A DNA stretch of 33,490 bases, taken from contig JAFRIR010000038.1 in the NCBI GenBank assembly GCA_017432685.1, positions 1-33,490 on the forward strand, written 5' to 3'. Made by a program: the position numbers and the translations under genes. The notes beneath the pieces were generated by a model. It saw only the letters and a program-made list of their open reading frames with translations. It was not told the origin of the DNA and searched no databases. Of this stretch, positions 10,694 to 24,475 are shown in pieces; position 1 is the stretch's first letter; each line of letters opens with the position of its first letter. Source of the stretch: Flexilinea sp. Its GTDB lineage: Bacteria; Chloroflexota; Anaerolineae; Anaerolineales; Anaerolineaceae.

Positions 10694-12304
10694 ATGAACG
10701 AGATCTATGTTACCGGTCACAGAAATCCCGATACGGATTCCGTGGTAGCCGCAATCGCATACGCCTCGCTGCGGAATGCTCTCGGTGACCGCAATTATAT
10801 CGCCGCCCATCTGGACCACATCAACGATGAAACCCAGCGCATTCTGGACCATTTCGGTGTGGAAACACCGATGAGGCTGCGGAACGTCCGCACACAGGTC
10901 TGTGACCTGGAATATGACACTCCGCCCGTGCTCAGTTCCACCGTTTCGATCGACTTTGCCTGGAACACGATTCAGGAACACGGCATCACGCACATTCCCG
11001 TTGTCAACGAAGACGGCACGCTGTACGGCATGATTTCCGCTGAAAACATCACCGAATACAACATGCTCGCCAACGAAAACGGCAGCATTGATGACGTGCC
11101 GATTTTCAACCTGCTCAGTGTCCTGGAAGGCAGGATGATCAATGATGACTGCGACAAAGACACCCTTTCCGGCGATATCGTGATCGCGCTGCCGCTGAAC
11201 TGTGAACAACTGATGTTCCGGAAAAAAGAAACCATCGTGATCTGCGGCAGCCAGCCGGACATCATCCGCAGGGCGCTGGACATGGGCGTGGAATGCCTGA
11301 TCATCTGCCAGTCGGAGGTCGACCCGGCCTGGATCGAAGCGCCCGGCAACACCTGCATCATCTCCACACCGTTTGATGCCCGCTACACCGTCTGCCAGAT
11401 CATTCAGGCGATCCCGATCGCTCATTACTGTGTCACCGATGACCTGATCAGTTTCCACCTGAATGACTATATTGATGACGTCCGGGAAAAGATGGGTGAC
11501 CGGCGTGACGCTTACTATCCGGTGCTGGATGAGAATGAGAAAGTGGTCGGCATGCTTTCCCGCTACCACCTGATGCGCCCCAAACGAAAACAGGTGGTGC
11601 TGGTGGACCATAACGAGATAGGGCAGGCCGTTCCGGGGTTGAATGAAGCAGAGATTCTGGAGATCATCGACCATCACCGCCTGGCAGACATCCAGACGCT
11701 GCAGCCCATCCGTATGCGGAACGAACCGGTCGGCAGCACCAACACCATCATCGCCGATATGTACATGCAGTATGGAAAGGTTCCCTCATCGTCTATTGCC
11801 GGGCTGATGGCCAGCGCCATCCTTTCCGATACGGTGATGTTCAAGTCTCCAACCTGTACCAAGCGGGATATCGCTCTCGCGGAGCGCATGGCGAGGATCG
11901 CCGGTGTGACGATCGAGGAACTGGGCAGAACCTTATTCGCCAATGTTTATGGAACGCATTCCGACCTGGATCAGCTCATCAACCGGGACTTCAAGGAATT
12001 CCACTTCGCCGAGCAGAAATTCGGTGTCGGGCAGATCACCAGTTACGATTCCGAGCCGCTGCTGCAGCGCAAGGATGAAATGCTGGATATCCTGCGGGAA
12101 ATAAACGAGGAACGGAAATACAGTTTCACCATGCTGATGATCACCGATGTGCTTCTGGGCGGGACGCAGCTGCTTTATGTCGGCAGCGACGACATCATCC
12201 GTCATGCCTTCAATCTGGAGCCAAAGGACAACATGGTCTTCCTGCCGGGCGTGATGTCCCGGAAGAAGCAGGTCATCCCGGCGCTCTCGGATCTGTGGGG
12301 GTAA
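10694..12304 (+). CDS. ppaC: Manganese-dependent inorganic pyrophosphatase with CBS domains
   Basis: A 536-residue family II (DHH-type) pyrophosphatase that hydrolyses diphosphate in the cytoplasm using Mn2+/Co2+. The catalytic N-terminal segment has GHRNPDTDS (H9, D13, D15). About residues 60-300 are the inserted regulatory region: a first CBS half (ITHIPVVNEDGTLYGMIS), a DRTGG-like domain (EGRMIND...), and a second CBS half (AYYPVLDENEKVVGMLSRYHLM). The DHH core resumes with VLVDHNE and IIDHHRL, and the DHHA2 domain ends the protein. In this family the CBS pair binds adenine nucleotides that inhibit or activate the enzyme. The ATG at 10694 has GGAGG six bases upstream. It converges on the HemN-like gene, with 32 bp of 3' overlap. 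Confidence 0.95.
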   Translation: MNEIYVTGHRNPDTDSVVAAIAYASLRNALGDRNYIAAHLDHINDETQRILDHFGVETPMRLRNVRTQVCDLEYDTPPVLSSTVSIDFAWNTIQEHGITHIPVVNEDGTLYGMISAENITEYNMLANENGSIDDVPIFNLLSVLEGRMINDDCDKDTLSGDIVIALPLNCEQLMFRKKETIVICGSQPDIIRRALDMGVECLIICQSEVDPAWIEAPGNTCIISTPFDARYTVCQIIQAIPIAHYCVTDDLISFHLNDYIDDVREKMGDRRDAYYPVLDENEKVVGMLSRYHLMRPKRKQVVLVDHNEIGQAVPGLNEAEILEIIDHHRLADIQTLQPIRMRNEPVGSTNTIIADMYMQYGKVPSSSIAGLMASAILSDTVMFKSPTCTKRDIALAERMARIAGVTIEELGRTLFANVYGTHSDLDQLINRDFKEFHFAEQKFGVGQITSYDSEPLLQRKDEMLDILREINEERKYSFTMLMITDVLLGGTQLLYVGSDDIIRHAFNLEPKDNMVFLPGVMSRKKQVIPALSDLWG

Positions 12305-13616
12305 TGTCATCGATCATCTTCATGATGAACCAGGAGCCGTTAGGGAGGAGCTCCGTTGACTCTCCGTCAGCGCTCACACGAAGATAGCCGCGCCCGATCC
12401 AGTTTTGGAAAAGAGTCAGCGCCTTTTCGGGACCGAGAAGGCGGATAAACGGCTCGGGATCCGGACGTCCGCCCCGGATCTCCCGCTCCAGACAGGCAAC
12501 GCGGCTTTCTGTCTCCGTCCGCAGCATACCGCCGAGAAACCCCGGATACCCCTGCTCAACCGCCGAACGATATTCAGGCAGCTCCGCATGGCGGTATAAA
12601 TACTCGCCGAAATATCCGTCCGCGATGGTCCCAAAAGAGAGCAGATCCTCTCCACGGGAGGGCGAAGTGAAATAACGGTTATCGTCCCGGCCTTTGGCCA
12701 TGTGGTTATAAATTTTCAGCGAACAGCCGGCATTCTCCGAGAGCCAAAAGGCATACTGATACTGCCGCCACATGGCCGTGATATCCGGATCCAGCAGGCC
12801 ATGACGCTCAAAAAAAGCGCGGTTGCGCGGAGACCGAACCAGCTCATAAATCGAAAGGCCCTCGACACCCGCATCCATCATTTCTTCCACATCGGCAGCG
12901 ATATCTTCTTCACCATACTGCGGCAGTCCAATGATGATATCGCTGCTGACCGCCCAGCCGCTTTCCACCGCATAACGGATCTTTCGAAGAACCTGCAGCC
13001 CGCTCTCACGGCGTCCGATCGCTCTGCGCACGGGATCACGCAGGGACTGCACGCCGATATGCAGCCGGGTGAAGCCAAGCCGCATAAGATCATCCAGAAC
13101 TTTTTCGTTAAGGTCTGAGGATGTTGACTCAAGAGCGAGTTCTGTGTTTTCTTTAACCTTAAAGAAATTTTGCACCGTCTCCACAACCCGGGCCAGCCCC
13201 TCTGTCCCAACCATCAGCGGCGTACCCCCGCCAAAATGGATCGTGGACAGGCGCTTTTCCCTCAGTGAAGGGACATTGCGTCCCCACCAGCTGATTTCCT
13301 TCTCAAGCAGTCCCGGATAGACAGCCAGGTCCGGAAGACGGGAAGGAGTCAACGGAAAGGAATAGCAGTCACAGTAGCCGCAGCGCGTCCGGCAGTAGGG
13401 GACATGGATATAGATACAAAAAGCGTCAGCAGGACTGGCTGCTGCCGCTTTCACGATCTGTTCTTCAAGAACGGAGCCCGAATCAGTCATGGGACGCTGC
13501 GCCCACAGCGGTTTCGGCATAGCCCGCTCTTTCAGGATCTCTGAAAAAGGCCGCGGATCAAAGCGCCGCAGCCCCTCCTCCTGTTGTTTTATTCGTTCAA
13601 CAAAGCTCTCGCTCAT
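12273..13616 (-). CDS. HemN/HemW-like radical SAM enzyme at the end of the maturation cluster
   Basis: A 447-residue radical SAM protein of the coproporphyrinogen-oxidase-like group. IHVPYCRTRCGYCDC holds the four-cysteine motif CxxxCxxCxC (C75, C79, C82, C84), followed by the SAM-binding FGGGTP and IGLPQYGEED. The C-terminal part resembles the HemN C-terminal domain. No heme genes are near. HemN-like proteins are not only heme enzymes: HemW is a heme chaperone, and class C radical SAM methylases such as NosN share this fold and act on RiPPs. Because it is the last gene on the strand of the Cys-rich protein cluster, a peptide-modifying role is plausible but unproven. A 70-residue N-terminal extension precedes the barrel. 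The start has no good ribosome binding site. It is separated from the substrate gene by 129 bp of heptamer arrays. Confidence 0.8.
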   Translation of the reverse strand: MSESFVERIKQQEEGLRRFDPRPFSEILKERAMPKPLWAQRPMTDSGSVLEEQIVKAAAASPADAFCIYIHVPYCRTRCGYCDCYSFPLTPSRLPDLAVYPGLLEKEISWWGRNVPSLREKRLSTIHFGGGTPLMVGTEGLARVVETVQNFFKVKENTELALESTSSDLNEKVLDDLMRLGFTRLHIGVQSLRDPVRRAIGRRESGLQVLRKIRYAVESGWAVSSDIIIGLPQYGEEDIAADVEEMMDAGVEGLSIYELVRSPRNRAFFERHGLLDPDITAMWRQYQYAFWLSENAGCSLKIYNHMAKGRDDNRYFTSPSRGEDLLSFGTIADGYFGEYLYRHAELPEYRSAVEQGYPGFLGGMLRTETESRVACLEREIRGGRPDPEPFIRLLGPEKALTLFQNWIGRGYLRVSADGESTELLPNGSWFIMKMIDDITPTDPRAPG

Positions 13617-13633
13617 TGTCTTTTAAGGGGATA

Positions 13634-13678
13634 AGGCTCAGGATTCAGGATGCAGGATTCAGAATTCAGAATACAGCA
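13634..13678. repeat. 7-bp tandem array (GATTCAG type)
   Basis: About six units of ATTCAGG, ATGCAGG, ATTCAGA and ATTCAGA at 7-bp spacing between the Tat/Cys-rich gene and the HemN-like gene. Confidence 0.8.
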
Positions 13679-13701
13679 GGACCACACAAAAACCAATTTC
13701 A

Positions 13702-13744
13702 AAACCCTAAACCCTATACCCTATACCCTATATCCTATATCCTC
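13702..13744. repeat. 7-bp tandem array (ACCCTAT type)
   Basis: Six units (AACCCTA, AACCCTA, TACCCTA repeated, then TATCCTA) ending two bases from the TAG stop of the Tat/Cys-rich gene. It shares most of its sequence with the array at 241-293. Confidence 0.88.
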
Positions 13745-13745
13745 A

Positions 13746-15122
13746 CTAATTCGGATGCCAGTAATGACCGGTCGTCACCACATTCCCGACGCAGCTGCAC
13801 ACCGTATCGCAGGTGCAGATGGTGTTTCCCACACAGGAGCAGACCGTGTCACAGGTACAGACCGTATGTCCGACGCAGGAACAAACCGAACCAGCCACAC
13901 AATTGCACACACAGACCGCACCCTCCGGAATCGGAGAGCCGCAGGGAAGAGTATAGGTGACCGTACGGCCGGTCGCCGGGTCCGTCCCTTTGACCTCGAT
14001 TCCCTTGGTATCGTCTTTCATTTCCTTCAGGTCCACCGGGCAGCCGATGATCTCAAAATCCGGAAGGCTGATGAACAGAATACTCTTCCCGGCACCGGCA
14101 GCTAACTGAGTTCCGTCATTCGCCACCACCAGCGGGTTCTGCGTACCGTCGCTGACTGTCAGGCGCCGGACCTCGGAACCGTCCGCCATGGAGATCAGGA
14201 CCAGCCGCTTCTTTGCATAAAGGATCCCGTAGGTGCCGTCAGGTGTGACAGCCGCGGACATAATGTTGCTGCTGATGGATGCATTCCAGATCACACTGCC
14301 ATCGACAAGAGAGACCAGACTGTATTGGCTGCTGTCCTTTTTACACAAGAGCGCTTTTGCCCCGCCGGGCAGGATAGCATAGGCATAATATGAATTGCCT
14401 TCGTCAAACACCCGCATGGTCCTGTTTTGTACATCGAAAACACCGTAGCCCTGTTCTTTGAGCAGAAACAGGGATCTTTCCGAAGCGAGGACCGACACAT
14501 TCCAATAGATATCGTTTGAATTCTCCGGGACACTTGCCAGGGTTTCCGGGCTTCCAAAGGATTTCCCATCCGTTTTACAGCGGAACAAATGTTTTTCGGA
14601 AACGATGTAAAGGTCGCCGTTGCTGTCTATGTCAAGGCTATTCAGACCTTCCGAACTTTTCAAAGACGGACTGACCGTCTCTCCGCTGATTTCCGTCAAA
14701 TCAGGCGCTTCCAACAGGCGGACCGTTTTTTCCCGGGAATAAAGCAGCGCCTGTTTTCCATCTCGCACCGTGGTACCCTCGATCCAGCCGGAACTGAGAT
14801 CTTTGTCTCCCAGGAGCGCATGTGAATGAAAATCCCAGCATTTGATTTTGTGCCCGCTGTCACAGGAAAGCAGATATTTTCCGTCTTTCGAAAGGCACAC
14901 CGCCATCACCGGATCTTTATGTGCCGGGGAATTTTCGCACAGGGACTCCAGGTCGGATGCCGCGTTCGCCGGTTTGACAAAGCGGCTGCCCATCCCGATC
15001 CCCATTACGGCTGCACCGAGACCGGCCGCTTTCAAAAAATCCCGGCGGCTGATCTGCCAGTCCCCGCCGCTGCGGCGGATCGCGTAAACTTCCGGTTTTT
15101 CTTTCTGATCATTTCCACTCAT
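13746..15122 (-). CDS. Tat-exported beta-propeller-like protein with a 13-Cys CxC repeat tail; probable maturation substrate
   Basis: A 458-residue protein in three parts. Residues 1-55 are a Tat signal: SRRDFLKAAG around R26-R27, a hydrophobic stretch and ANA|A near 54. Residues 56-380 are WD40/propeller-like repeats, for example HKDPVMAVCLSKDGKYLLS followed by IKCWDF. Residues 403-458 are a tail with 13 cysteines, all in CxC pairs or a CxCxC: CVCNC, CSC, CTC, CSC, CTC, CSC (C404 to C444). The core is a 14-residue unit, VCSCVG(H/N)T(V/I)CTCDT, present twice (413-440) plus a half unit, then the end GHYWHPN. The ATG at 15122 has GGAGG four bases upstream. Its neighbours are four radical SAM genes and a PqqD-like gene upstream and a HemN-like gene downstream. 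I infer that the tail is modified in the cytoplasm before Tat export. No family name is known to me. Confidence 0.88.
   Translation of the reverse strand: MSGNDQKEKPEVYAIRRSGGDWQISRRDFLKAAGLGAAVMGIGMGSRFVKPANAASDLESLCENSPAHKDPVMAVCLSKDGKYLLSCDSGHKIKCWDFHSHALLGDKDLSSGWIEGTTVRDGKQALLYSREKTVRLLEAPDLTEISGETVSPSLKSSEGLNSLDIDSNGDLYIVSEKHLFRCKTDGKSFGSPETLASVPENSNDIYWNVSVLASERSLFLLKEQGYGVFDVQNRTMRVFDEGNSYYAYAILPGGAKALLCKKDSSQYSLVSLVDGSVIWNASISSNIMSAAVTPDGTYGILYAKKRLVLISMADGSEVRRLTVSDGTQNPLVVANDGTQLAAGAGKSILFISLPDFEIIGCPVDLKEMKDDTKGIEVKGTDPATGRTVTYTLPCGSPIPEGAVCVCNCVAGSVCSCVGHTVCTCDTVCSCVGNTICTCDTVCSCVGNVVTTGHYWHPN
13749..13916 (-). repeat. Coding repeat for the Cys-rich tail (42-bp unit)
   Basis: Encodes residues 403-458. 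Two 42-bp units (13803-13886) and a 21-bp partial unit (13782-13802) encode the CSC/CTC motif. The copies differ at the nucleotide level, mostly synonymously (GTC/GTA, ACC/ACG-type changes), while the Cys spacing is kept, so the amino acid pattern appears to be under selection. Confidence 0.8.
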
Positions 15123-15392
15123 AATACCTCCAAAAGGGAAAATCCATTTCCAGCGATGAGACATGCTGATCTGATTTAAGGAACCCTCTAAAATTCTGTA
15201 AAATTACTTCCTCATTCACAGTTTATCCTATATGGCGCGGGATTCAGATTTATTTTGTCTCGGAAAATAACCTTCCCGCGCCAGGTTTTCCGGGGGCTAT
15301 GCAGCCCCCATACCCCCGCCCGGTAGATTTTAGAATTGCCACAGTGATGAGACACTGTTATCTAATTAAAATTATACAACAGGTTTTTATGA
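15123..15392 (-). promoter_or_regulatory. Structured leader with duplicated hairpin ahead of the Cys-rich protein gene
   Basis: No gene is visible in these 270 bp. On the minus strand TATAAT occurs at 15376-15371, with no good -35. A hairpin CAGTG-ATGAGA-CACTG (15342-15357) is repeated in altered form at 15151-15168 (CAGCGATGAGACATGCTG). The two 30-bp elements, including a following YTAATTAAA/CTGATTTAA stretch, are about 70 percent alike by eye. Between them lie the palindrome GGGGGCT-ATGC-AGCCCCC (15292-15309) and an inverted pair GGCGCGGGA / TCCCGCGCC (15234-15242 and 15274-15282). A run of G tracts (GGGCGGGGGTATGGGGG on the minus strand) overlaps. This looks like a folded 5' leader or a processing site that sets the substrate gene apart from the enzyme genes. 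Confidence 0.55.
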
Positions 15393-16682
15393 TTATCCCA
15401 CACTCAGTTTTCTCAGCAACAGTTCGAGCGTGAGCGCCCGGTTGATCTCGCAGCGGTTATAAGGCCAATCACCCTCTTCCGCCGGGATTCCTCTCGTAAA
15501 ACAGTCGCCCGCACAATGATAATAGCAAAAGCAATCCCTGCATTTGTCCTTCCGATGCAGGATCCCGGTCATCTGTGCAATGCGTTTTTCTTCATCGATG
15601 AAGATCCCGCCTGCATCCGCGTGACCGAAGACACCGCCGCACTGGCCGTCACGTCCCGTCGTCTCATAACAGCCGGTCACCTGCCCCAACGGGTTGACCG
15701 TCAGGCTCCCGCCCAGCGGAGCCTTGCAAAATACCGCAGAGACATTCTCCGGACGGGCGCCGGAATAATAGAGGAATTTCCCATGATCCGCAGCGATCTG
15801 CCATGCGTCCAGAAAGCTCTTAACAAAACACTCTCCCTGCTCCCGGAAGGCTGTCCCATGGGCACCGCGGACTTCATAAAAAGCCGGTTCCGCCTGGATC
15901 TCCCGGCAGCCGGTGTTTTCACACAAAAAGCGCACATCCTCCGGCAGCCGCTCAAAGCGTTCCGGCGTGACCGTCATACGGATGTTGAAGGAATACCCCG
16001 CCTCCGTGAGCTGCTTCACCGAGCGCATCACAAGCTCAAAAGAAGCCTTCCCGCCCGGCAGCGGCCGCTGGAGGTTTTGTGTCTCCGCGGCTCCATCCAT
16101 GGAGATCGTCATCCCGTCGATCCATTCCATCAGCCATTTTCCGTGCGCTTCACTCCAGCAGCCGTTGGTGACGATGTGCAGCGTGGATCTCAGCGGTTTT
16201 TCACGGGCATATTTCGCGAGTTCCAGCATCGCATCCCAATGCAGCGTCGGCTCCCCGCCCCCGTGAAAGGTCACGGAAAAGTGGTCCATCCCTTGCTTCC
16301 GGGCATTGTCACAGACCAGGTCGATCGCTCTGCGGGCAAGGGCGGGGTCCAGGTCTAAATTGTTCGTTTCACCGCCATTGGCATAGCAGTAAATACAGCG
16401 CAGGTTGCAGCGGTTGCTCATCAGCAGCGCAGCGAAGGTCGGCTGAAATTCTTTAAGGTTTGGATCGGGAGGTTCCGGCGGATCGGGCTGCGTGAAGCCG
16501 ATGGAATCGAAAAAGTCCAGCGCCTCCGGTTCGTCAGCAAGTGACTCTCTTTTCCATGTACCGCAAAATTGCTGTGCACAGTCTGCCATCGCCCGGTTGC
16601 CCAAAAACAGCAGTCCCCGCAGCGGACGATAAATCAGATATTTATCCTGAAACGGTATCAGATAAAGCGATTTCCCGCTCAT
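15393..16682 (-). CDS. Radical SAM/SPASM peptide-maturase-like enzyme (third SPASM paralogue)
   Basis: A 429-residue SPASM radical SAM protein. The first 80 residues form an N-terminal domain (YLIPFQDKYLIYRPLRGLLF) that it shares with the protein at 19402-21108. The radical SAM motif is CNLRCIYC (C92, C96, C99), followed by FHGGGEPTLHW and SMDGAAETQNLQRP, as in anaerobic sulfatase maturases and RiPP maturases. The SPASM half has CKAPLGGSLTVNPLGQVTGCYE and then CRDCFCYYHCAGDC with a final C near NRCEIN, enough for two auxiliary [4Fe-4S] clusters. SPASM enzymes of this class abstract hydrogen from peptide side chains to make thioether or C-C crosslinks or formylglycine. Its start overlaps the previous stop as ATGA (16679-16682), so it is translationally coupled. 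It directly precedes the leader of the Cys-rich substrate gene. Confidence 0.9.
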   Translation of the reverse strand: MSGKSLYLIPFQDKYLIYRPLRGLLFLGNRAMADCAQQFCGTWKRESLADEPEALDFFDSIGFTQPDPPEPPDPNLKEFQPTFAALLMSNRCNLRCIYCYANGGETNNLDLDPALARRAIDLVCDNARKQGMDHFSVTFHGGGEPTLHWDAMLELAKYAREKPLRSTLHIVTNGCWSEAHGKWLMEWIDGMTISMDGAAETQNLQRPLPGGKASFELVMRSVKQLTEAGYSFNIRMTVTPERFERLPEDVRFLCENTGCREIQAEPAFYEVRGAHGTAFREQGECFVKSFLDAWQIAADHGKFLYYSGARPENVSAVFCKAPLGGSLTVNPLGQVTGCYETTGRDGQCGGVFGHADAGGIFIDEEKRIAQMTGILHRKDKCRDCFCYYHCAGDCFTRGIPAEEGDWPYNRCEINRALTLELLLRKLSVG

Positions 16683-18010
16683 TGATCCTCCCTCAGCTTC
16701 ACCCCGGCATAACCGTAATTCCGTGCCGGTCCAAACAGCAGCCGTTCCGCAGTCTCCGTCAGCTCCGTTTCCGCCAGCCGGCGGTTCACCCGACAGCGGA
16801 AGCTCCCCGCATCCCTGGCATCAACGGACAAAGCCGGGCAGACATCCGGGCAACCCCGCGCACAGTGAAAACGGTTGAAACAGTGCTCACAGTCCGGATC
16901 CTCCCGGGAAAGTTTTTCAAAAAGAGCCTCATCCTGCATGGGATCCAGCTGTTTCTCTTCCGCCTCTTCCTGAGAGGAAACCGCGAAACAGGACGAGGCG
17001 CCTGCCGGCGGGACCAGATGGAGCGCCTGACGGAAGATCTGGCAAAAACGTCCATGGACCTCTCCGATCCGGCTGCCGCTGGAAACGATCTTTGCAGGTT
17101 TTTCAGATTGTGCCTTCAAGAAAGACTCACAAAAAACATCTGCAAGATCCGCATCAATGTGCTGATGATACACCGGCTCAATATGGATCTCCTCAGCGTC
17201 AAATCTTTCCGCTATGAAACCGGCAATTTCCGGGATCCTGCCGAAGTTTTCAGGCAGGACCGTCACCCGAAAGGATAGATTCTCTGAAATCCTGCTGATA
17301 TTTTTGATTGTCCGCTCCAGGATCCGGAAGCTTTCCGAACCGTTCCGCAGCGGCCGCTGCCGGTTGTGGAGCTCCGGCGGACCGTCAACGGAAATACCCA
17401 CCCTGTCAAAATGTGCAGCGATCCAGCGGGCTTTTTCCGGGTCCATGACGCCGTTCGTCGCGATATAGGAGCGGAATGGTACCTTTGCCTGTTTGCAGAT
17501 CCATTGCAGATCCGTCAGCAGATCCGGAAGCCGCGAATCCAGTGAAGGCTCACCGCCGCCATGAAAGACAGCCGTGAACGGCTCACCCTTTTCCCGGCAG
17601 TTCCCGGCCACCTCACGGGCAGCAGCCATAATCAGGTCTTTGGACAGCCTGACACCTTCCCGATGGGCAGCTTTGGCAAAACAATAAGAGCAGTTCAGAT
17701 TACAATCCAGCGTCGTATAAAGCGTCAGGCAGGTCGGCCGGTAATTTTCGGGATCATGCATCTGCTGCCAGATAGCCTGTGCAGAAAGCGCCGCCCGGAT
17801 CAGGTAATGAGGCGTCATATCCTCACCGAAGGGAAGAGCTCCGGAAAGGATCCCCGTGATCTCCTCCGCCTCACGCTTTCGGGCGGCTGCAAGATACCCC
17901 GGAGCATAAAACAGCGTCAGGTCGCCGGCATTTCGGAAAAAGACCGGCGGGGATACCCCTTCGATCTGCCGGAACACGTCTTTATTCAGGACATCCGGGC
18001 TCACAGACAC
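16679..18010 (-). CDS. Radical SAM/SPASM peptide-maturase-like enzyme (second SPASM paralogue)
   Basis: A 443-residue SPASM radical SAM protein with a divergent 95-residue N-terminal domain, the motif CNLNCSYC (C103, C107, C110), VFHGGGEPSLDSRLP and ISVDGPPELHNRQRP. The C-terminal SPASM region has CFAVSS, then a spaced cluster CEHCFNRFHCARGCPDVCP and a final CRVN, so both auxiliary clusters look possible, although the segment between the first and later cysteines is unusually acidic (SSQEEAEEKQLDPMQDEALF). The GTG at 18010 overlaps the end of the PqqD-like gene by 29 bases; a second in-frame GTG at 18004 has a better distance from GAGG. The coupling upstream to the PqqD-like gene and downstream (ATGA) to the next SPASM gene argues that the three act together. 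Confidence 0.9.
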   Translation of the reverse strand: MSVSPDVLNKDVFRQIEGVSPPVFFRNAGDLTLFYAPGYLAAARKREAEEITGILSGALPFGEDMTPHYLIRAALSAQAIWQQMHDPENYRPTCLTLYTTLDCNLNCSYCFAKAAHREGVRLSKDLIMAAAREVAGNCREKGEPFTAVFHGGGEPSLDSRLPDLLTDLQWICKQAKVPFRSYIATNGVMDPEKARWIAAHFDRVGISVDGPPELHNRQRPLRNGSESFRILERTIKNISRISENLSFRVTVLPENFGRIPEIAGFIAERFDAEEIHIEPVYHQHIDADLADVFCESFLKAQSEKPAKIVSSGSRIGEVHGRFCQIFRQALHLVPPAGASSCFAVSSQEEAEEKQLDPMQDEALFEKLSREDPDCEHCFNRFHCARGCPDVCPALSVDARDAGSFRCRVNRRLAETELTETAERLLFGPARNYGYAGVKLREDQ

Positions 18011-18449
18011 GCACCTCGCATAATTTCAAAAACACCGCCCGGACGAATGAGCGGGTCTTTTCCTCATCCCAGCCGGTATATTGCTGAACCTTAACAAAAA
18101 CCTCCGACATCGGCTGTTCTCCGTTGAACTGGTTGAAGACAAACAACGCCGGTGAATCAAGCGAAAACAACGGGATCGGGTCAACAGCTGCGGAAGTCTC
18201 CGCGCAGACCATCCCTTTTTCCAGGCTGATTTTCGCCTTACGGTTGACAGCCGGGTAAAGCTCAGAGAACTGTGCAACGTCAAACTCCGTCAGGTCTTCG
18301 ATACGGTAACTCGGCAGTCCCGCCCGGCTGCGCTTCCGTTCCGCAGCAGCATCCGCGGCAGCAGAAAACATCCCGCGGCGGGAGACCCTGATTTTCATCT
18401 CTCCGACGGTCTTCGGAAAATGTTCGGAATCGATCAGTGGCTTTTTCAT
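17982..18449 (-). CDS. PqqD-like small protein, probable peptide-recognition partner
   Basis: A 155-residue protein. The C-terminal half (about 98-150) reads like PqqD: SPALFVFNQFNGEQPMSEVF, then a helix pair QYTGWDEEKTRSFVRAVFLKLCEVRVC, matching the winged helix of the PqqD / RiPP recognition element fold, including the 'lFn.fdG..s..ei...l' pattern. Such domains bind the leader or substrate and deliver it to a radical SAM partner. The N-terminal half has an isolated SRRGMFSAAADAAAE, reminiscent of a Tat box but without a hydrophobic segment, and ILE-type beta segments with a cysteine (MVCAETSA). The ATG at 18449 overlaps the stop of the preceding radical SAM gene (ATGA), with GGGGGA upstream. 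The assignment is by eye and would be the weakest link in the system. Confidence 0.6.
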   Translation of the reverse strand: MKKPLIDSEHFPKTVGEMKIRVSRRGMFSAAADAAAERKRSRAGLPSYRIEDLTEFDVAQFSELYPAVNRKAKISLEKGMVCAETSAAVDPIPLFSLDSPALFVFNQFNGEQPMSEVFVKVQQYTGWDEEKTRSFVRAVFLKLCEVRVCEPGCPE

Positions 18450-19402
18450 CGATCCCCCATCGGCTGCAATCTGCGCAAACGGGCAGCAATACAGCCGCCG
18501 CAGCACTCTTCTGTCTCAAAATAAACACATTTTGAACATTCCGGATAAATCCCGAAAGTTCGCAGAGGCCTGATCCGTTCTGTCATCGCCTGAAAAGCAG
18601 CTTCGGCATCCGGAAAATCCGCTTGATTCAGCGAAAACAGGTTTGACAAACCGAAGCAGGGAATGATCCTGCCCCCGGTGCACAGATCCAGCACCGGCGA
18701 GCATCTGGAAATATAGCGGAACCCGTTTGCCGTGAGCCGATCAAAGGAATTTCCGAACATACAGCGGACAAACCCACAATCCGCATCCAGGCTGATCCCG
18801 TGTTCTGCTGTCAGAAAGGATTGCTCCAGCAGAGCCTGCCCAATCATCGGGTAACATTTCGGATGCAGCGCCCTGTTCGCTCCCTGCCAGGTCGGGTGAG
18901 CCAGTCCGATGCGGATGTTCCTGCGCAGTCGATAGTTTTCGATCCATGTCACAGCTTCCCGAAAGGAGAAAGCCGCCGAGGTCAGTGTATATCCCAATGA
19001 CACACGTGGACCAAGCATCTCCAGTGTCTCCTGACGGATACGTAACTCCCGGTTTCCACATGATGCGCTCATATTGATCACCACGTTACAGACCTCCGGG
19101 TCCAGCGCGGCCAGGGCACTCCGTGCCGGCTTCGACATCACACCGTTGGAAAAAACCGTGACCGTACAACCTGCCTCGCGGCCGAGGTTTACAAATTTAT
19201 CAAAACACGGGTGCATCGTCGGCTCACCACCGAGAAGCCGAAGCTCCCTGATCCCTCCCCGCAGTGTGAAATCCAGCCAGGCCCGAACCTCCGTTTCGTC
19301 CATCTGAAAGTGATTCTCACGAAGCATACGTCTGCGTGAATCGACAGCAAAGCAGAAGTCGCAGTGTGTGCTGCAGTAGTTGGTGATGATCTGATTTGCC
19401 AT
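18446..19402 (-). CDS. Small radical SAM enzyme with Cys-rich C-terminus
   Basis: A 318-residue radical SAM protein that begins almost at its motif: NYCSTHCDFCFA (C10, C14, C17). RLLGGEPTMHPCFDKFV and FSNGVMSK follow, as in molybdopterin- or peptide-directed radical SAM enzymes. The C-terminal region is shorter than in the SPASM paralogues but keeps two cysteine groups, CTGGRIIPCFG and CSKC...CCGGC, so a SPASM-like or twitch auxiliary cluster is likely. It lacks the N-terminal 80-residue domain of its neighbours. The ATG at 19402 shares a base with the preceding stop (TGATG) and has GGGAG upstream. Substrate unknown; position between the long SPASM enzyme and the PqqD-like gene suggests a role in the same maturation pathway. 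Confidence 0.88.
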   Translation of the reverse strand: MANQIITNYCSTHCDFCFAVDSRRRMLRENHFQMDETEVRAWLDFTLRGGIRELRLLGGEPTMHPCFDKFVNLGREAGCTVTVFSNGVMSKPARSALAALDPEVCNVVINMSASCGNRELRIRQETLEMLGPRVSLGYTLTSAAFSFREAVTWIENYRLRRNIRIGLAHPTWQGANRALHPKCYPMIGQALLEQSFLTAEHGISLDADCGFVRCMFGNSFDRLTANGFRYISRCSPVLDLCTGGRIIPCFGLSNLFSLNQADFPDAEAAFQAMTERIRPLRTFGIYPECSKCVYFETEECCGGCIAARLRRLQPMGDR

Positions 19403-21108
19403 CAATTGCTCCCTTCCCGAAGCGCTGACCAAACCATCTCTATATCCGATTTGTTCATACCGGAATGATCCAGCTGAAATTTCAGGGATTCGTCTCCTTC
19501 CAGAACCTTAACAAAATTATCATAAGAACATGATGAACCGCAGTACGGGATATATTTCTGCTGTTCCGATATCGCGTCAGCAGCAGAACAGCCTCTGTCG
19601 GTTTCGTTCAGCCCGGACGTATCAGCAATAATGATCCGGGATCCATCCCGGAACCATCCCTGAGCCGAATCTGAAGGGAGAGGAGGCAATTCTTTGGGTT
19701 TCGGTGAATGATAACGATTCCAGGATTCTGTACCATATGCGGATAATACCATCGGGAAAGTATCCGGGCATTCAAGCCCGGCATCGCGAAAATCAGTCTG
19801 TTTTGTCACCCAGGCCCGGTAAACTTCATTTTCCAATATCTCATCCGACCGGTTCCGGCATCCAAGCTGATCAAGAAGCTGCCACAGGGTCAATATTTTT
19901 GTCATACAGCAGAAATCACCGTTCCGTTCCCGTGTCAGGACACAGCCGCCTGCGCAGTGCGCATAACAGAAACAACCCCGGCAGCTTTCCCGGTTTTCTT
20001 CGCTGGTTGCCCGCTGTTGCTCCAACAATTCTTCATCTATACGCATATTTTCGGAACTGACGTACCCAAAATACCGGCCGGACCCGTCAGTTTGCCGATT
20101 CTCCGCCAGCTGCCAGCAGCTGCCGATTTGTCCTTCCGGGTCAACGATCAGCGCATCTCTTCCCACCGGGCAGAGGGAATTTCTGCATTCACTGATATCA
20201 CCCGAGGAATAAACCAATGGGATCTGCTTCGCTTTCAAAATTCGCTGCGCTGACGCCCATTGTCTTGCAAAGACCAACGGATCCGGCGACATCAAGCCGT
20301 TCTTTCGGGACATGGCGCTTTCGATCATCGGTTCCAGACAGACAGCACCCACCGTCCAGCGATCCGCAAGAAAGGCCGCCCATGCAGGAAGTTCTTCAAC
20401 ATTTTCCGCCGAGATACAGGAACGGATGATCAGTTCACAAGGACCTTTCGAGAAAATATCCGCGCTTCGGCAGACCGTTTGGAAAGACTCCCCGCCGTTC
20501 GCTCCCGGCCGCTGCCGGTTCTGTGAATCAGGAAACCCGTCCAGTGAAAGCACCACCGTATCCATGTTTTCCGCGATCCAGCGGGCTTTTTCTTCAGAAT
20601 AAAATCCGTTCGTCGTCACCTCAAAACGGACCGGTACACCTGCTTTTTCAGCCTTTCGCCGGGCATAATTCACAGCAAAAAAGACCTCTTTGAACGCGGC
20701 AAATGGCTCTCCGCCGAAAAAATGAATATTCCAGTCAGCCGCCCCGCTCTTTCGCATGACTTCCGCATAACCGTCAACCGCCCGGCGGATCAGGTCAAAG
20801 GACATCACGGGATGGGCCTGCAGCGCAGCAAAATCACAGTAGGCACAATGCATCATGCAGTCCCGGGTCGGAACCAGACCGAGAAAACACGGATCAGGCA
20901 CTCCGCATTTGCGGTCGGGACGGTTTCCCTCTTTTCGCAGTTCCCCAACCCAGGGAGCGCCTGCCGGAATCGGAGCTGAAGCGTCCTCAAGACAAACGGA
21001 AACTGCTGCTGCCATTGCCCGGTTGACCAGCGTCGAAATGCCGTGAAACGGCACATAAATCAAAACCTGGCTGCGGTTAATGGGGATGTACCACACATCA
21101 GCGGACAC
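19402..21108 (-). CDS. Long radical SAM/SPASM enzyme with a C-terminal extension (first SPASM paralogue)
   Basis: A 568-residue protein, about 140 residues longer than the other two SPASM enzymes here. N-terminal domain 1-75 (WYIPINRSQVLIYVPFHG) resembles that of the third paralogue. The radical SAM motif is CMMHCAYC (C84, C88, C91), then FFGGEPFAAFKE and SLDGFPDSQNRQRP. SPASM cysteines are C308, C313, C331, C376, C379, C381, C385, C389 and C400/C401, a full set for two auxiliary clusters. Residues about 420-568 are an extension I do not recognise, with a Pro-rich linker (KPKELPPLPSD) and YIPYCGSSCSYDNFVKVL near the end. The GTG start at 21108 has GGGAG six bases upstream and lies 13 bases after the preceding stop, so it is in one operon with the FGE-like gene. 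Confidence 0.9.
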   Translation of the reverse strand: MSADVWYIPINRSQVLIYVPFHGISTLVNRAMAAAVSVCLEDASAPIPAGAPWVGELRKEGNRPDRKCGVPDPCFLGLVPTRDCMMHCAYCDFAALQAHPVMSFDLIRRAVDGYAEVMRKSGAADWNIHFFGGEPFAAFKEVFFAVNYARRKAEKAGVPVRFEVTTNGFYSEEKARWIAENMDTVVLSLDGFPDSQNRQRPGANGGESFQTVCRSADIFSKGPCELIIRSCISAENVEELPAWAAFLADRWTVGAVCLEPMIESAMSRKNGLMSPDPLVFARQWASAQRILKAKQIPLVYSSGDISECRNSLCPVGRDALIVDPEGQIGSCWQLAENRQTDGSGRYFGYVSSENMRIDEELLEQQRATSEENRESCRGCFCYAHCAGGCVLTRERNGDFCCMTKILTLWQLLDQLGCRNRSDEILENEVYRAWVTKQTDFRDAGLECPDTFPMVLSAYGTESWNRYHSPKPKELPPLPSDSAQGWFRDGSRIIIADTSGLNETDRGCSAADAISEQQKYIPYCGSSCSYDNFVKVLEGDESLKFQLDHSGMNKSDIEMVWSALREGSN

Positions 21109-21121
21109 GGTTCACTCCCGG

Positions 21122-23524
21122 TCAGTTTTCGGAGACCGCACAGCGGAAGCCGCGGTCAAGACCGAAGGAAGTACCGATGCCATAGAAACGGTCAGTCGTC
21201 CGGGCGTTGTTTTCCCCGGTCTGGGCCGAACCACCGCGGATCACATAATAGTTTCCGTTTTCCGGACCTGTCGGGTCGATCGGCTGGTTCGTAACGCTGT
21301 ACCAGTTTTCCTGATAGCGATCGGACACCCATTCCGAAACGTTTCCGCCCAGGTCATACACACCAAAAGCGCTGACATCCTCCGGGTTGGCATTCACCGC
21401 AAGGGTGTCATAATTTCCATTTCCGGAATAATTCAGATTTCCGGAGACAAAAGCCGCGCCCCAGGGGTAGGCAGTCCCTTCCGGACCCTTTGCCACATAT
21501 TCCCATTCAGCCTCGGTCGGCAGACGCATCCCCGCCCATTCACAGTAAGCTGCCGCCTGCTGCCTGTCCACGGCAATCACCGGATAGTTGCTGAAAGCCG
21601 GATTCCCGTAATAGGAGGCCTGACGGAGGGATTTCGTCTCATGCGGTTCCGTACACGCCCCCTCAGCCACACACAGCGCATATTGCTCGTTATTGACTTC
21701 GTACGCGTCGATCCAGTAAGCCGAAAGCGTCACTTCGTGAACCGGCTTCTCGTCGATCTGTCCGTTGGTCACACCCATGTTGAAGACCGCGGATGGGATA
21801 TAAACCATTTTTGCATTGTCCTTTGCCCGGACACCTTTGGAAGACCACAAGCCGGGGTTCAGCAAAACGTCCACATCGTCCTCGCTTACCTCAAATTTTT
21901 CCGGATCCAGCGAATTCATATCCACAAAACAGCGGAACCCGATGTTGTCAGCCGCGTAACCCGGGAACGTTTCTATTTCCGCATCAGGACCGGCAGCAGC
22001 CGGATAGCTGTTCCACGCACCGCCCAGGGCAACATCAGCGCCATCACCCTCCGGGGCTGTCCATTCCCAAACATTGCCGATCATCTGCACCATGCCATAA
22101 GCCGAAGACGGAGAACGGAAAGCAGTGACGGGAACCGTCAGCGCATGCTGATCTTCGGAATGGATGTAAGCGCGCCGGTTGGTACCGACGACATTGACCG
22201 ATGAAGCCGTGACAGCCGCGTTATCGGCGAGTTTTGCAGCAGCTTTCCACTCATCAGCGCTCGGAAGCCGCATGCCCGCCCATTCACAATAGGAAGCCGC
22301 CTGACCGGAATTCACATAAACCATCGGCAGCTTGTCAGCAGCATTTTCCTCTTCGGGATAGGCAAGGCGGTAGAGCGCTTCCGGCAGCTCACAAACCCCG
22401 TCAGCCACACACGATTGATATTGCTCGACTGTCACCGCATAGACGGACGCCAGCACATCCTTTTCCGTCAGCAGCAAGATGGAACCGTCCTGCTTTGCGA
22501 TGACCGCCTGTCCCGGTTTGACCTGCACAGCTGCCTTTTCCGGAACCGGTTCTGTCTCGGAAACAGAAGCAGCGATAGCAGAGGCTTTTCTGCCAACCGT
22601 TGTGTCAGATGCATCTTCTGTTGTTTCTTCTGTGACCGAAAGCTCAGCCTCAGCCACTTCAGCCGTCGGCAGCGGAACCGAAGGCCCCTCCACCACAACG
22701 ATATCAGCTTCCGGAGTCTCGGCCCCTTCAACTGCCTCTTCCAACGGTTTTTCCCCTTCCGCAGTCCTTATCTCTGTCTTTACCGGAACAACAGTTTTGA
22801 CATCCGCATCCGCCGGCGTCTTTTCCGCGTCCTTTTTGTCGGAAACCGGATCGGCTGCCGGAGTCTGTACCGGCACACTGACCTGAGCCGGTACAAAATC
22901 CTTAAGGGAAGCAAGGCCGTTCTCACTCACCGTCTGAAAAGCCGCCATCACCGTTTGGTGCGTTCCGGTCCTCAGGATCTCACGGTTCAGGAACCAGCCA
23001 CCGACAGCAAGCAGCACAAAGACCACGAAAAACCAGCCTCCGTTCCGGGGCTTTGCGGCAATTGTCACGATATTGTCGAAGGCGCCGAGCAGGTCATTTT
23101 CCCCGCGGGCACGCTTGAGCCGGCGCAGAAGATCTTCATAACCGCCCTTCTGCAGCAACCAGATCAACAGAATAAAGGAGCCGATCACCGGGATCAGCCC
23201 GAGCAGCAGCCACCAGCCGCTTTTCGGCAGGGAATGCAGACGGCGGACGGTTGCTGACCAAACCGGAATGACCATCAGCAGAAAATAAAAGCACCAGAGC
23301 GGCAGCACCCAGGGAATATAAATTTTCGAAAGCATGCCGGTCTCATCTGCAATATTGAGCGCAGCGGGCAGCAGGTCATTTTTATTCAGCAGGAAAAAGA
23401 TACCGGGCACAAGCGGTATCAGCAGGATCAGCCAGTGAATGATCATCGCCATCCAATAGACACCGCGTTTCATGAATCCGGAGAAATTTGCATAATTCCG
23501 AAACAGACTGAAATATGACTTCAT
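21122..23524 (-). CDS. DUF805 membrane protein fused to two FGE/SUMF1-fold domains
   Basis: An 800-residue protein. Residues 1-135 are a DUF805 domain (RNYANFSGFMKRGVYW, then RRLHSLPKSGWWLLLGLIPVIG) with three or four membrane segments; another hydrophobic segment at about 163-180 follows. Residues 195-350 are an acidic low-complexity Val/Glu/Thr linker. Two formylglycine-generating-enzyme folds follow: 355-535 (VTVEQYQSC, YCEWAGMRLPSADEWKAAAK, GNVWEWTA) and 573-800 (MVYIPSAVFNMG, YCEWAGMRLPTEAEWEYVAKG, GGNVSEWVSDRY, VIRGGSAQTGENNARTTDR, GFRCA). The paired cysteines of true FGE (RGGS followed by CxxxxC) are absent, so it is probably not an oxidase of sulfatases. The fold is also used for ligand binding and protein recognition. 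The start at 23524 has GGGAGG upstream. First gene of the radical SAM cluster. Confidence 0.88.
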   Translation of the reverse strand: MKSYFSLFRNYANFSGFMKRGVYWMAMIIHWLILLIPLVPGIFFLLNKNDLLPAALNIADETGMLSKIYIPWVLPLWCFYFLLMVIPVWSATVRRLHSLPKSGWWLLLGLIPVIGSFILLIWLLQKGGYEDLLRRLKRARGENDLLGAFDNIVTIAAKPRNGGWFFVVFVLLAVGGWFLNREILRTGTHQTVMAAFQTVSENGLASLKDFVPAQVSVPVQTPAADPVSDKKDAEKTPADADVKTVVPVKTEIRTAEGEKPLEEAVEGAETPEADIVVVEGPSVPLPTAEVAEAELSVTEETTEDASDTTVGRKASAIAASVSETEPVPEKAAVQVKPGQAVIAKQDGSILLLTEKDVLASVYAVTVEQYQSCVADGVCELPEALYRLAYPEEENAADKLPMVYVNSGQAASYCEWAGMRLPSADEWKAAAKLADNAAVTASSVNVVGTNRRAYIHSEDQHALTVPVTAFRSPSSAYGMVQMIGNVWEWTAPEGDGADVALGGAWNSYPAAAGPDAEIETFPGYAADNIGFRCFVDMNSLDPEKFEVSEDDVDVLLNPGLWSSKGVRAKDNAKMVYIPSAVFNMGVTNGQIDEKPVHEVTLSAYWIDAYEVNNEQYALCVAEGACTEPHETKSLRQASYYGNPAFSNYPVIAVDRQQAAAYCEWAGMRLPTEAEWEYVAKGPEGTAYPWGAAFVSGNLNYSGNGNYDTLAVNANPEDVSAFGVYDLGGNVSEWVSDRYQENWYSVTNQPIDPTGPENGNYYVIRGGSAQTGENNARTTDRFYGIGTSFGLDRGFRCAVSEN

Positions 23525-24461: not shown

Positions 24462-24475
24462 GAGGAGGCTTGGAA

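What the first reader, a model, noticed from the sequence alone, without database searches (positions are those of the whole stretch)
12273..23524. Candidate new maturation system: five radical SAM enzymes, a PqqD-like protein and a Tat-exported propeller with a CxC-repeat tail
Seen: eight genes in the same direction. The FGE-like gene and first SPASM gene are 13 bases apart; the next four junctions, down to the third SPASM gene, are overlapping stop/start codons. The last structural gene before the HemN-like gene encodes a Tat protein whose C-terminal 56 residues hold 13 cysteines in CxC units. Known: SPASM enzymes with PqqD-like partners commonly install thioether, C-C or other crosslinks in Cys-rich peptides, and a substrate can sit at the end of a larger protein. 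Inference: the tail is the core and the propeller is the exported carrier or active partner. I do not recognise a described family with this combination.
Basis: partly seen in the sequence, partly recalled or inferred. Interest (0 to 1): 0.93.

Follow-up and report, generated by a model that had tools for sequence, protein, structure and literature searches.

The report
Multi-enzyme crosslinking of exported protein tails
A gene set found in several bacterial phyla encodes up to five radical enzymes and a predicted leader-binding helper that likely modify and crosslink the cysteine-rich tail of a protein before it is exported, a protein-finishing system that matched no named family in the libraries searched here.

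Summary
In detail: eight same-strand genes (12273-23524) with five radical-SAM proteins, a PqqD-like protein, an FGE-like membrane protein and a Tat-signal WD40 protein with a CxC-repeat tail. A second complete copy lies elsewhere in the genome; the order recurs in two congeneric genomes. The tail is an unnamed module: head TLPCGSPIPxGAxCxCNCV, mostly six-residue CxC repeats, and ends of the type HYW[YH]P[ND] or CTC[IV]PV. It occurs in genomes labelled Chloroflexota, Acidobacteriota, Armatimonadota, Bacteroidota, Verrucomicrobiota and others. The carrier is swappable (WD40, SH3, Ig-like); a pre-Tat leader motif and the tail are constant. One SPASM enzyme, S3, lies in 63 of 82 tail loci, without the others in 27. 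The others (S1, S2, M, D, HemN-like) track the YWxPN ending: 40 of 43 loci with them, 1 of 27 without. D has a predicted leader-binding fold. Best reading: S3 likely installs thioether links in the tail and the others likely modify its Tyr/Trp end, in the cytoplasm, before Tat export. The chemistry is inferred; PapB/QhpD-type Cys-to-Asp/Glu links cannot be general, since 92 of 328 tails lack acidic residues. Nine searches of an open-access library showed no description. A new variant of radical-SAM maturation.

The parts
21122..23524 (-). FGE-like protein: DUF805 membrane domain plus two FGE-sulfatase stretches; probably accessory
   Evidence: Pfam PF03781 225 bits, 2 stretches, and PF05656; in the fetched loci, full-length homologues only in the second copy, G009 and G010 (fetched flanks are at most 10 kb). 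The region where SUMF1-type enzymes carry two active-site Cys (recalled) reads IRGGSAQTGENNARTTDRF, without Cys.
19402..21108 (-). S1, radical-SAM/SPASM protein
   Evidence: PF04055 47.8 bits; own clade in the tree, 30 of 31 S1 rows together
18446..19402 (-). M, small radical-SAM protein; start set at the conserved MAN(L/Q) rather than the upstream TTG
   Evidence: PF04055 39 bits; alignment A3; 2 of 400 Chloroflexota genomes have M proper (over 440 bits), both with the tail
17982..18449 (-). D, PqqD-like protein, predicted RiPP-recognition (RRE-type) fold; start set at ATG 18449
   Evidence: Profile hits PqqD chain 3g2b_A E=0.00081; AlphaFold mean pLDDT 85.7; Foldseek ranks 3 and 4 are PqqD 5sxy and leader-bound TbiB1 5v1v, ranks 1 and 2 a methyltransferase, none below E 0.001
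16679..18010 (-). S2, radical-SAM/SPASM protein; fused to the HemN-like protein in some relatives
   Evidence: PF04055 58.6 bits; clade of 30 of 30; fused ORFs in L027, L028, L046, L052
15393..16682 (-). S3, radical-SAM/SPASM protein, the most constant partner of the tail
   Evidence: PF04055 56.7 bits; best named family PapB 116.4 bits against a cut-off of 340; closest solved structure 5wgg; S3 proper in exactly the 3 of 400 Chloroflexota genomes that have the tail
13746..15164 (-). Tat-signal WD40 propeller carrying the tail; conserved N-terminus suggests Met at 15122
   Evidence: TIGR01409 32.3 bits over cut-off; WD40 E=7.8e-06, just under the Pfam cut-off; AlphaFold propeller confident, residues 1-56 and 392-458 under pLDDT 50 in the 458-residue form; WD40 folds in Foldseek
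15078..15095 (-). leader motif PEVYAI ahead of the Tat motif; likely recognition site
   Evidence: position checked; motif type in 54 of 55 YW-ending carriers with an N-terminus, across WD40, SH3 and Ig-like carriers
15033..15050 (-). twin-arginine motif SRRDFL
   Evidence: position checked; TIGR01409 and PF10518 over cut-off
13749..13952 (-). C-terminal tail from TLPCG to HYWHPN; likely substrate
   Evidence: position checked; conserved head and ends
13749..13763 (-). terminal YWHPN motif; motifs of this type track the accessory enzymes
   Evidence: position checked
12273..13616 (-). HemN/HutW-like radical-SAM protein
   Evidence: TIGR04107 HutW 176.5 bits against a cut-off of 400; solved relatives HemN 1olt and methyltransferase NocN 9p2u; found in 28 of 81 tail-pattern loci

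Best explanation
Five radical-SAM proteins, a PqqD-like protein predicted to bind a leader peptide, and a Tat-signal WD40 protein with a cysteine-rich tail are encoded together, and the enzymes likely modify that tail in the cytoplasm before the protein's predicted export. Shown by comparison: the tail and a pre-Tat leader motif are constant while the carrier domain changes; S3 is the most constant partner of the tail; S1, M, D, S2 and the HemN-like protein come and go with the terminal YWxPN motif. Inferred: D (and the N-terminal regions of the SPASM enzymes) would hold the PEVYA-type leader; S3 would install thioether crosslinks from cysteines of the head TLPCGSPIPxGAxCxCNCV and the CxC repeats to neighbouring residues such as Asn, Thr or Val; S1/M/S2/HemN-like would then modify the HYW[YH]P[ND] end, possibly by an aromatic-to-Asn/Asp cyclophane at [YH]-P-[ND] and an alteration of the Tyr-Trp pair. 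The finished, folded protein would leave by the Tat route and display the modified tail outside the membrane. What the tail does there (redox, metal binding or attachment) is untested.
For: Tail loci with set members in the locus: 70 of 82; with S3: 63 of 82, in 57 of these within 1.5 kb of a tail ORF (plus L023 by hand). S3 proper (over 540 bits) occurs in exactly the 3 tail-bearing genomes of 400 Chloroflexota; the next best is 388.5 bits. YWxPN ending: 40 of 43 loci with accessory enzymes against 1 of 27 with S3 alone, Fisher 8e-15. On the S3 tree of 65 rows the ending changes 3 times, bootstrap 3-3; the nested gain (L031, L034) and the nested loss (L049) coincide with gain or loss of the accessory genes. 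Leader motif in 54 of 55 YW carriers with an N-terminus. Carrier domains differ: a WD40-type model matches 51 of the 63 carriers scanned, SH3_3 L063 and N_BRCA1_IG L080. D fold. S3 is nearest to thioether-forming enzymes (PapB, SCIFF maturase, QhpD families; solved 5wgg). Fusions S2-HemN-like and M-U. Leader and tail are predicted disordered around a confident propeller.
Against: No modification has been measured. All named-family scores are far below the curated cut-offs. The Cys-to-Asp/Glu reaction of PapB/QhpD cannot be general because 92 of 328 tails have no D/E from the head on, so the acceptor is a guess. Seven loci have accessory enzymes but no S3 in the fetched stretch (L047, L052, L055, L060, L070, L072, L089). 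The Fisher test ignores kinship and counts a locus as YW if any of its tails is; the tree shows only three switches. The accessory-gene label itself needs 6 changes, rows L041, L053 and L097 disagree, and L076 holds S3 genes of both clades. The leader patterns were written after seeing the sequences. CxC repeats would also suit metal binding. Two tail-bearing genomes show no S3: G013, where the tail is a decayed remnant, and G105, a draft; two more (G107, G108) show only weak generic hits.
Confidence: 0.7

Rival explanations
1. The tail is a metal-binding or iron-sulfur module made of free CxC thiolates, and the radical-SAM enzymes modify only the short head and the YWxPN end, or provide a metal ligand.
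For: CxC units, most often six residues apart (319 spacings), resemble metal-thiolate proteins (recalled); 161 of 197 YW ends have His before Tyr.
Against: The closest named and solved relatives of S3 are thioether-forming maturases that act on Cys-rich substrates, and in 27 loci S3 is the only set member found beside Cys-rich tails.
Confidence: 0.14
2. The tail end becomes a protein-derived redox cofactor (tryptophylquinone-like, from the Tyr-Trp pair) supported by Cys crosslinks, as in quinohemoprotein amine dehydrogenase; the propeller is its protein partner.
For: QhpD makes three Cys-to-Asp/Glu links in a polypeptide whose Trp becomes CTQ, in the cytoplasm, with an N-terminal leader (PMC7876137, passages); YW stands in 197 of 328 tail ends, with Y/H next in 194 and N/D last in 193.
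Against: SH3 and Ig-like carriers with no propeller occur; no flavoprotein or c-type haem family was among the Pfam hits of the eight genes; the QhpD family score is 72.7 against a cut-off of 453.
Confidence: 0.1
3. The tail is a precursor that is cut off after modification to give a small diffusible product, so the carrier is a spent delivery domain.
For: Usual logic of RiPP and PQQ pathways (recalled); D is PqqD-like.
Against: No protease family is among the Pfam hits of the eight genes; unassigned ORFs of relatives were only crudely clustered, so a protease elsewhere is not excluded. The carriers include adhesion-type SH3 and Ig-like domains.
Confidence: 0.06

Closest known systems
QhpD / quinohemoprotein amine dehydrogenase gamma subunit (qhp operon)
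   Same: radical-SAM enzyme acting on a protein subunit, N-terminal leader, cytoplasmic crosslinking before export, Trp in the modified region (PMC7876137, passages)
   Different: TIGR03906 score 72.7 of 453; tail often lacks Asp/Glu; Tat signal instead of leader cleavage by QhpE and ABC export; no QhpG-like family hit in the block; three SPASM enzymes instead of one
Ranthipeptide maturases PapB and CteB (SCIFF)
   Same: best profile match of S3 (116 bits) and nearest solved structure 5wgg (that 5wgg is CteB is recalled); Cys-rich targets; S-Cbeta links to Asn and S-Cgamma to Thr are on record (PMC11002830, passages)
   Different: below the family cut-off of 340; substrate is the end of an exported protein of about 260-1250 residues, not a short peptide; Asp/Glu acceptors of the Cys-Xn-Asp/Glu motif (PMC9413430, abstract) absent in 92 of 328 tails
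Triceptide / three-residue cyclophane enzymes (XncB, OscB, YxdB, YhhB)
   Same: C-terminal [YH]-P-[ND] fits the aromatic i to i+2 pattern, for which Asn and Asp acceptors are on record (PMC11002830, passages; counts)
   Different: S1, S2 and S3 score far below the cut-offs of the cyclophane families listed; Pro in the middle; the end sits on an exported carrier
PqqD and other RiPP recognition elements
   Same: D has the predicted fold and a weak profile match
   Different: extra N-terminal part with an invariant Arg-Arg; no Pfam/NCBIfam hit

Membership tests
PapB-type ranthipeptide system | maturase over the NF047865 cut-off of 340 bits | tested here: not met
   S3 of the window 116.4 bits; the five S3 relatives scanned 96.7 to 143.4
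PapB-type ranthipeptide system | Cys-Xn-Asp/Glu acceptor motifs in the substrate | tested here: not met
   92 of 328 tails have no D/E from the head on (the 328 include near-copies)
PapB-type ranthipeptide system | thioether links to a non-alpha carbon | not testable with these tools
   needs mass spectrometry or NMR
QHNDH maturation (QhpD) | maturase over the TIGR03906 cut-off of 453 bits | tested here: not met
   72.7 bits for S3 in the window; best relative scanned 133.9
Triceptide (three-residue cyclophane) system | aromatic-X-acceptor motif (i, i+2) in the substrate | tested here: met
   196 of 197 YWxP ends have Y, H or F before Pro and 193 of 197 end in N or D
Triceptide (three-residue cyclophane) system | enzyme in a named cyclophane-forming family | tested here: not met
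   far below cut-off, e.g. YhhB 52 of 445 for S3, 56 of 445 for S2, 42.5 of 445 for S1
RiPP recognition element (PqqD-like) | winged-helix PqqD fold | tested here: met
   PqqD profile match E=0.00081; predicted fold matches PqqD (E 0.0077) and leader-bound TbiB1 (E 0.0087); best row a methyltransferase at E 0.0026
RiPP recognition element (PqqD-like) | binds the leader peptide | not testable with these tools
   leader motif conserved; binding not measured
Formylglycine-generating enzyme | two active-site Cys after the GGS motif (recalled) | tested here: not met
   no Cys in IRGGSAQTGENNARTTDRF, nor in the matching stretch of the second copy
HutW/ChuW haem-degrading methyltransferase | over the TIGR04107 cut-off of 400 bits | tested here: not met
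   176.5 bits

The most novel reading that the evidence does not exclude
A new class of post-translational modification: Tat-exported proteins with exchangeable domains (WD40, SH3, Ig-like) carry a C-terminal 'cable' that S3 ties into a ladder of cysteine crosslinks and that, in the larger systems, S1/M/S2/HemN-like cap with a Tyr/Trp-derived cofactor or cyclophane, so that the modified tail, not the folded domain, is the working part on the cell surface.
Probability: 0.35. Interest if true: 0.93.

Novelty: new variant of a known kind. Interest (0 to 1): 0.85.

Why it matters
Radical-SAM peptide maturation is mostly known from short peptides. Here the same enzyme kind appears dedicated to the ends of large exported proteins in several phyla, with a natural two-step design: a minimal system of one SPASM enzyme and one carrier, and an extended one with up to four more radical enzymes linked to a single terminal motif. 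That makes enzyme order, leader recognition and the chemistry of each step directly testable, offers a modular tag that could be moved between carriers, and would give meaning to proteins that sources now name only WD40 repeat protein or hypothetical protein.

Tried and rejected
Rejected: PapB/QhpD-type Cys-to-Asp/Glu chemistry as the general reaction (92 of 328 tails without D/E). Rejected: propeller as the essential active partner (SH3 and Ig-like carriers). Rejected: FGE-like gene as a formylglycine enzyme or core part (no recalled active-site Cys; full-length only in close relatives among the fetched loci). Rejected: S3-like genes of small-genome Chloroflexota (G149, G200, G215) as members: 257-330 bits, and in the two loci opened (G149, G215) nearly equal scores for the S1, S2 and S3 profiles and no ORF with three or more CxC units in the stretch; M-like genes in that genus and in G469 about 150-180 bits.

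Led nowhere: clustering of unassigned ORFs was swamped by shadow frames. The U domain (fused to M or beside it) found no Pfam, NCBIfam or PDB match for the members searched; a likeness to U32-type hydroxylases came to mind and was not tested. Nine paper searches gave no description of the system: seven were aimed at it, two at known chemistry; only listings with abstract starts were seen except for six papers: PMC7876137, PMC11002830, PMC7159879, PMC6367495 and PMC12281569 at passages and PMC9413430 abstract and outline. From the passages seen, PMC7159879 and PMC6367495 are not about this system.

Dropped rows and limits: 20 loci were left out of the locus counts (set): most repeat other loci, and L009-L012 and L015 are weak WD40-only matches. 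L020 was left out of the trees. L023 was missed by the tail pattern and is added by hand to make 82. ORFs under 300 bits, or with a match over 650 residues, were left out of the first tree. In one search, 9 of 239 held proteins did not match the tail pattern, and the pattern itself fixes two of the four head Cys and the N/D. One search kept the best 80 of 83 stretches (79 loci); one search listed 120 of 201 and 120 of 144 proteins. One search scanned 63 of 98 tail ORFs. In the 400-genome searches only the best few candidates of a genome were scored (at most 14, 5, 4, in the rows shown). One search counts 10 of 101 genomes, of which G026, G039, G075 and G078 are weak propeller-only matches.


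Full report
What is there. Eight genes on the minus strand occupy 12273-23524. In order of transcription: an FGE-like protein with a DUF805 membrane domain, S1 (SPASM), M (small radical SAM), D, S2 (SPASM), S3 (SPASM), a Tat-signal propeller with a Cys-rich tail, and a HemN/HutW-like radical-SAM protein. Radical_SAM is above the Pfam cut-off in five of them. Junctions were read directly: 13-base gap FGE/S1, stop/start overlaps at S1/M, M/D and S2/S3, and a 23-29 base overlap at D/S2. SPASM-type cysteine spacing (C-x2-C-x5-C-x3-C, pattern recalled) is visible in S1, S2 and S3.

It recurs. The same genome holds a second complete copy on contig 141, whose tail protein is 52% identical. Of 101 related genomes searched, 10 had a match to the propeller protein, four of them weak propeller-only matches. 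G009 and G010 have the same eight genes in the same order, G007 and G014 parts of it on short contigs, and G013 only a tail remnant with no enzyme gene of the set nearby. The G009 locus is Flexilinea flocculi TC1 and G010 a Flexilinea genome, by matching contig lengths and coordinates.

The tail is a module of its own. A search with the tail region gave 201 proteins at E<=0.001 (120 listed) and one with an S3-only tail gave 144 (120 listed). A scan of named genomes gave 79 loci in records labelled Chloroflexota, Acidobacteriota, Armatimonadota, Bacteroidota, Verrucomicrobiota, Pseudomonadota, Nitrospirota, Planctomycetota, Gemmatimonadota and others (phylum labels); most are metagenome-assembled, so single labels may be wrong. 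Across 328 tails (98 ORFs plus 230 database proteins, near-copies included) the head reads T-L-P-C-G-S-P-I-P-x-G-A-x-C-x-C-N-C-V; two of its four Cys are fixed by the search pattern, the other two stand in 321 each. Following CxC units are mostly six residues apart (319 spacings, next 131 at eight). Of the 328, 197 end in YWxP; x is Y or H in 194, and the last residue is N in 178 and D in 15. No Pfam or NCBIfam model covers the tail in the proteins scanned.

The carrier is swappable, the two ends are not. A WD40-type model (Beta-prop_THOC3) matched 51 of 63 carriers scanned; L063 carries SH3_3 and L080 N_BRCA1_IG instead, and L133 has no Pfam match at E<=0.0001. Ahead of the Tat motif sits a leader of the type P-E-V-Y-A-I: 54 of 55 YW-ending carriers with an N-terminus match the pattern. 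Many carriers without the YW end have another leader (F-E-L-x-R-V-x-x-D-G): of 33 with an N-terminus, 27 match one of the two patterns. The patterns were written after seeing the sequences. AlphaFold places a confident propeller between a disordered leader and a disordered tail, and Foldseek finds WD40 proteins. This is what one expects if leader and tail are read by enzymes and the middle is cargo or anchor; that step is inference.

Enzymes track the tail. In 81 tail-pattern loci plus L023, members of the set lie in the locus in 70 of 82 and S3 in 63, in 57 of these within 1.5 kb of a tail ORF. Seven loci have accessory enzymes without S3 in the fetched stretch: L047, L052, L055, L060, L070, L072 and L089; L052, L055 and L089 share an assembly, by contig prefix, with loci that have S3 (L076, L080, L088). 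For the 12 loci without any set member, the whole genome was searched with S3: L030, L033, L035, L057, L095 and L102 lie in genomes with S3 homologues, L101 (not passed itself) belongs to the assembly of L033 by its contig prefix, and L042 has a partial one; L077 and L093 begin at the contig end and their genomes show only weak generic hits; L056 (G105) and L023 (G013, remnant) have none. In 400 Chloroflexota genomes the tail occurs in 3, S3 proper (548.8 to 604.3 bits) in the same 3 and in no other, next best 388.5, and M proper (over 440 bits) in 2 of those 3. The system is therefore rare in that phylum but tightly linked.

Two layers. Loci with S1, S2, M, D or HemN-like genes have YWxPN-type ends in 40 of 43 cases; loci with S3 alone in 1 of 27 (Fisher 8e-15). 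The exceptions are L053 (a HemN-type hit that scored only 69.7 bits with the first profile, possibly an unrelated gene), L070 (ends YRYPN), L097 (ends in SYWY) and L041 (S3 cut by the contig end). The test ignores kinship. On a tree of 65 S3 rows the ending changes three times (bootstrap 3-3); inside the clade without YW ends, L031 and L034 have both YWxPN and accessory genes, as does L076, which however also holds S3 genes of the other clade; L049, inside the YW clade, has neither. The accessory-gene label needs six changes, and rows L041, L053 and L097 disagree. S1, S2 and S3 form separate groups (two changes in all; one L089 row lies outside the main S1 group). S2 is fused to the HemN-like protein in L027, L028, L046 and L052, and M to a further unnamed domain (U) in L027, L028, L031, L046 and L076, which suggests joint action.

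What the parts are like. S3 is nearest to PapB (116.4 bits of a 340 cut-off), with SCIFF and QhpD maturases also among its best matches, and its profile best matches solved 5wgg. Thioether links to Asp, Glu, Thr and Asn made by such enzymes are on record (PMC11002830, passages; PMC9413430, abstract). Because 92 of 328 tails contain no Asp or Glu from the head on, the constant reaction would need another acceptor. D matches PqqD by profile at E=0.00081, folds with mean pLDDT 85.7 and resembles PqqD and leader-bound TbiB1 by Foldseek, though the best E is 0.0026 and the first two rows are a methyltransferase. The HemN-like protein resembles HutW (176.5 of 400) and solved HemN and NocN; NocN is named a methyltransferase there. 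The FGE-like protein lacks the cysteines recalled for formylglycine-generating enzymes.

Mechanism. The closest worked example is the qhp operon: QhpD crosslinks a polypeptide held by its leader in the cytoplasm, QhpG oxidises its Trp, and the product is exported after leader cleavage (PMC7876137, passages). By analogy, and as inference only, S3 would crosslink the Cys-rich part, the accessory enzymes would act on the Tyr-Trp end (the [YH]-P-[ND] step fits the i/i+2 rule of three-residue cyclophanes), and Tat would export the finished protein. Tat suits this since it carries folded proteins (recalled).

Novelty. No NCBIfam or Pfam family specific to the tail, D or U was found, and the S enzymes, M and the HemN-like protein reach only general cut-offs (Radical_SAM; Fer4_12 for S3), none of those of the named maturase families shown. 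Nine paper searches in an open-access library showed no description; subscription papers are mostly missing from it. I rate it a new variant of radical-SAM protein maturation.

Noticed in passing
G000:C141 (L001 5364-17467): A second complete copy of the eight-gene block in the same genome, with tail protein 52% identical.
   Followed up: yes
window 15165-15392: The gap between S3 and the propeller gene holds a GC-rich inverted repeat (GGGGGCT-GCAT-AGCCCCC on the minus strand), which could separate expression of enzymes and carrier.
   Followed up: no
window 13617-13745: The gap between propeller and HemN-like gene holds short near-tandem repeats of the type GGATATAG/GGGTATAG.
   Followed up: no
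L068 8639-11737 and L082 7868-10978: Tails of the S3-only kind are followed by a further domain that looks like an intramolecular chaperone (Peptidase_S74-like by eye, not tested); L062 and L092 carry another extension after the tail.
   Followed up: no
L022 14242-15282; L045 5310-6260; L047 6119-7222; L048 4723-5679; fused to M in L027, L028, L031, L046, L076: Unnamed U domain of about 310 residues, no Pfam, NCBIfam or PDB match for the members searched, beside or fused to M.
   Followed up: partly
L023 11220-11657: Decayed tail-only remnant in a congeneric genome in which no S3 homologue was found.
   Followed up: yes
G149, G200, G215 and others of genus g112: Small-genome Chloroflexota carry S3-like and M-like radical-SAM genes at lower scores, with no CxC-rich ORF beside the two S3-like genes opened (L130, L131).
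   Followed up: partly
window 24470-25471: GGGtGRT family protein (PF14057) on the opposite strand next to the block; elsewhere in the window uronate catabolism genes (glucuronate isomerase, altronate dehydratase).
   Followed up: no
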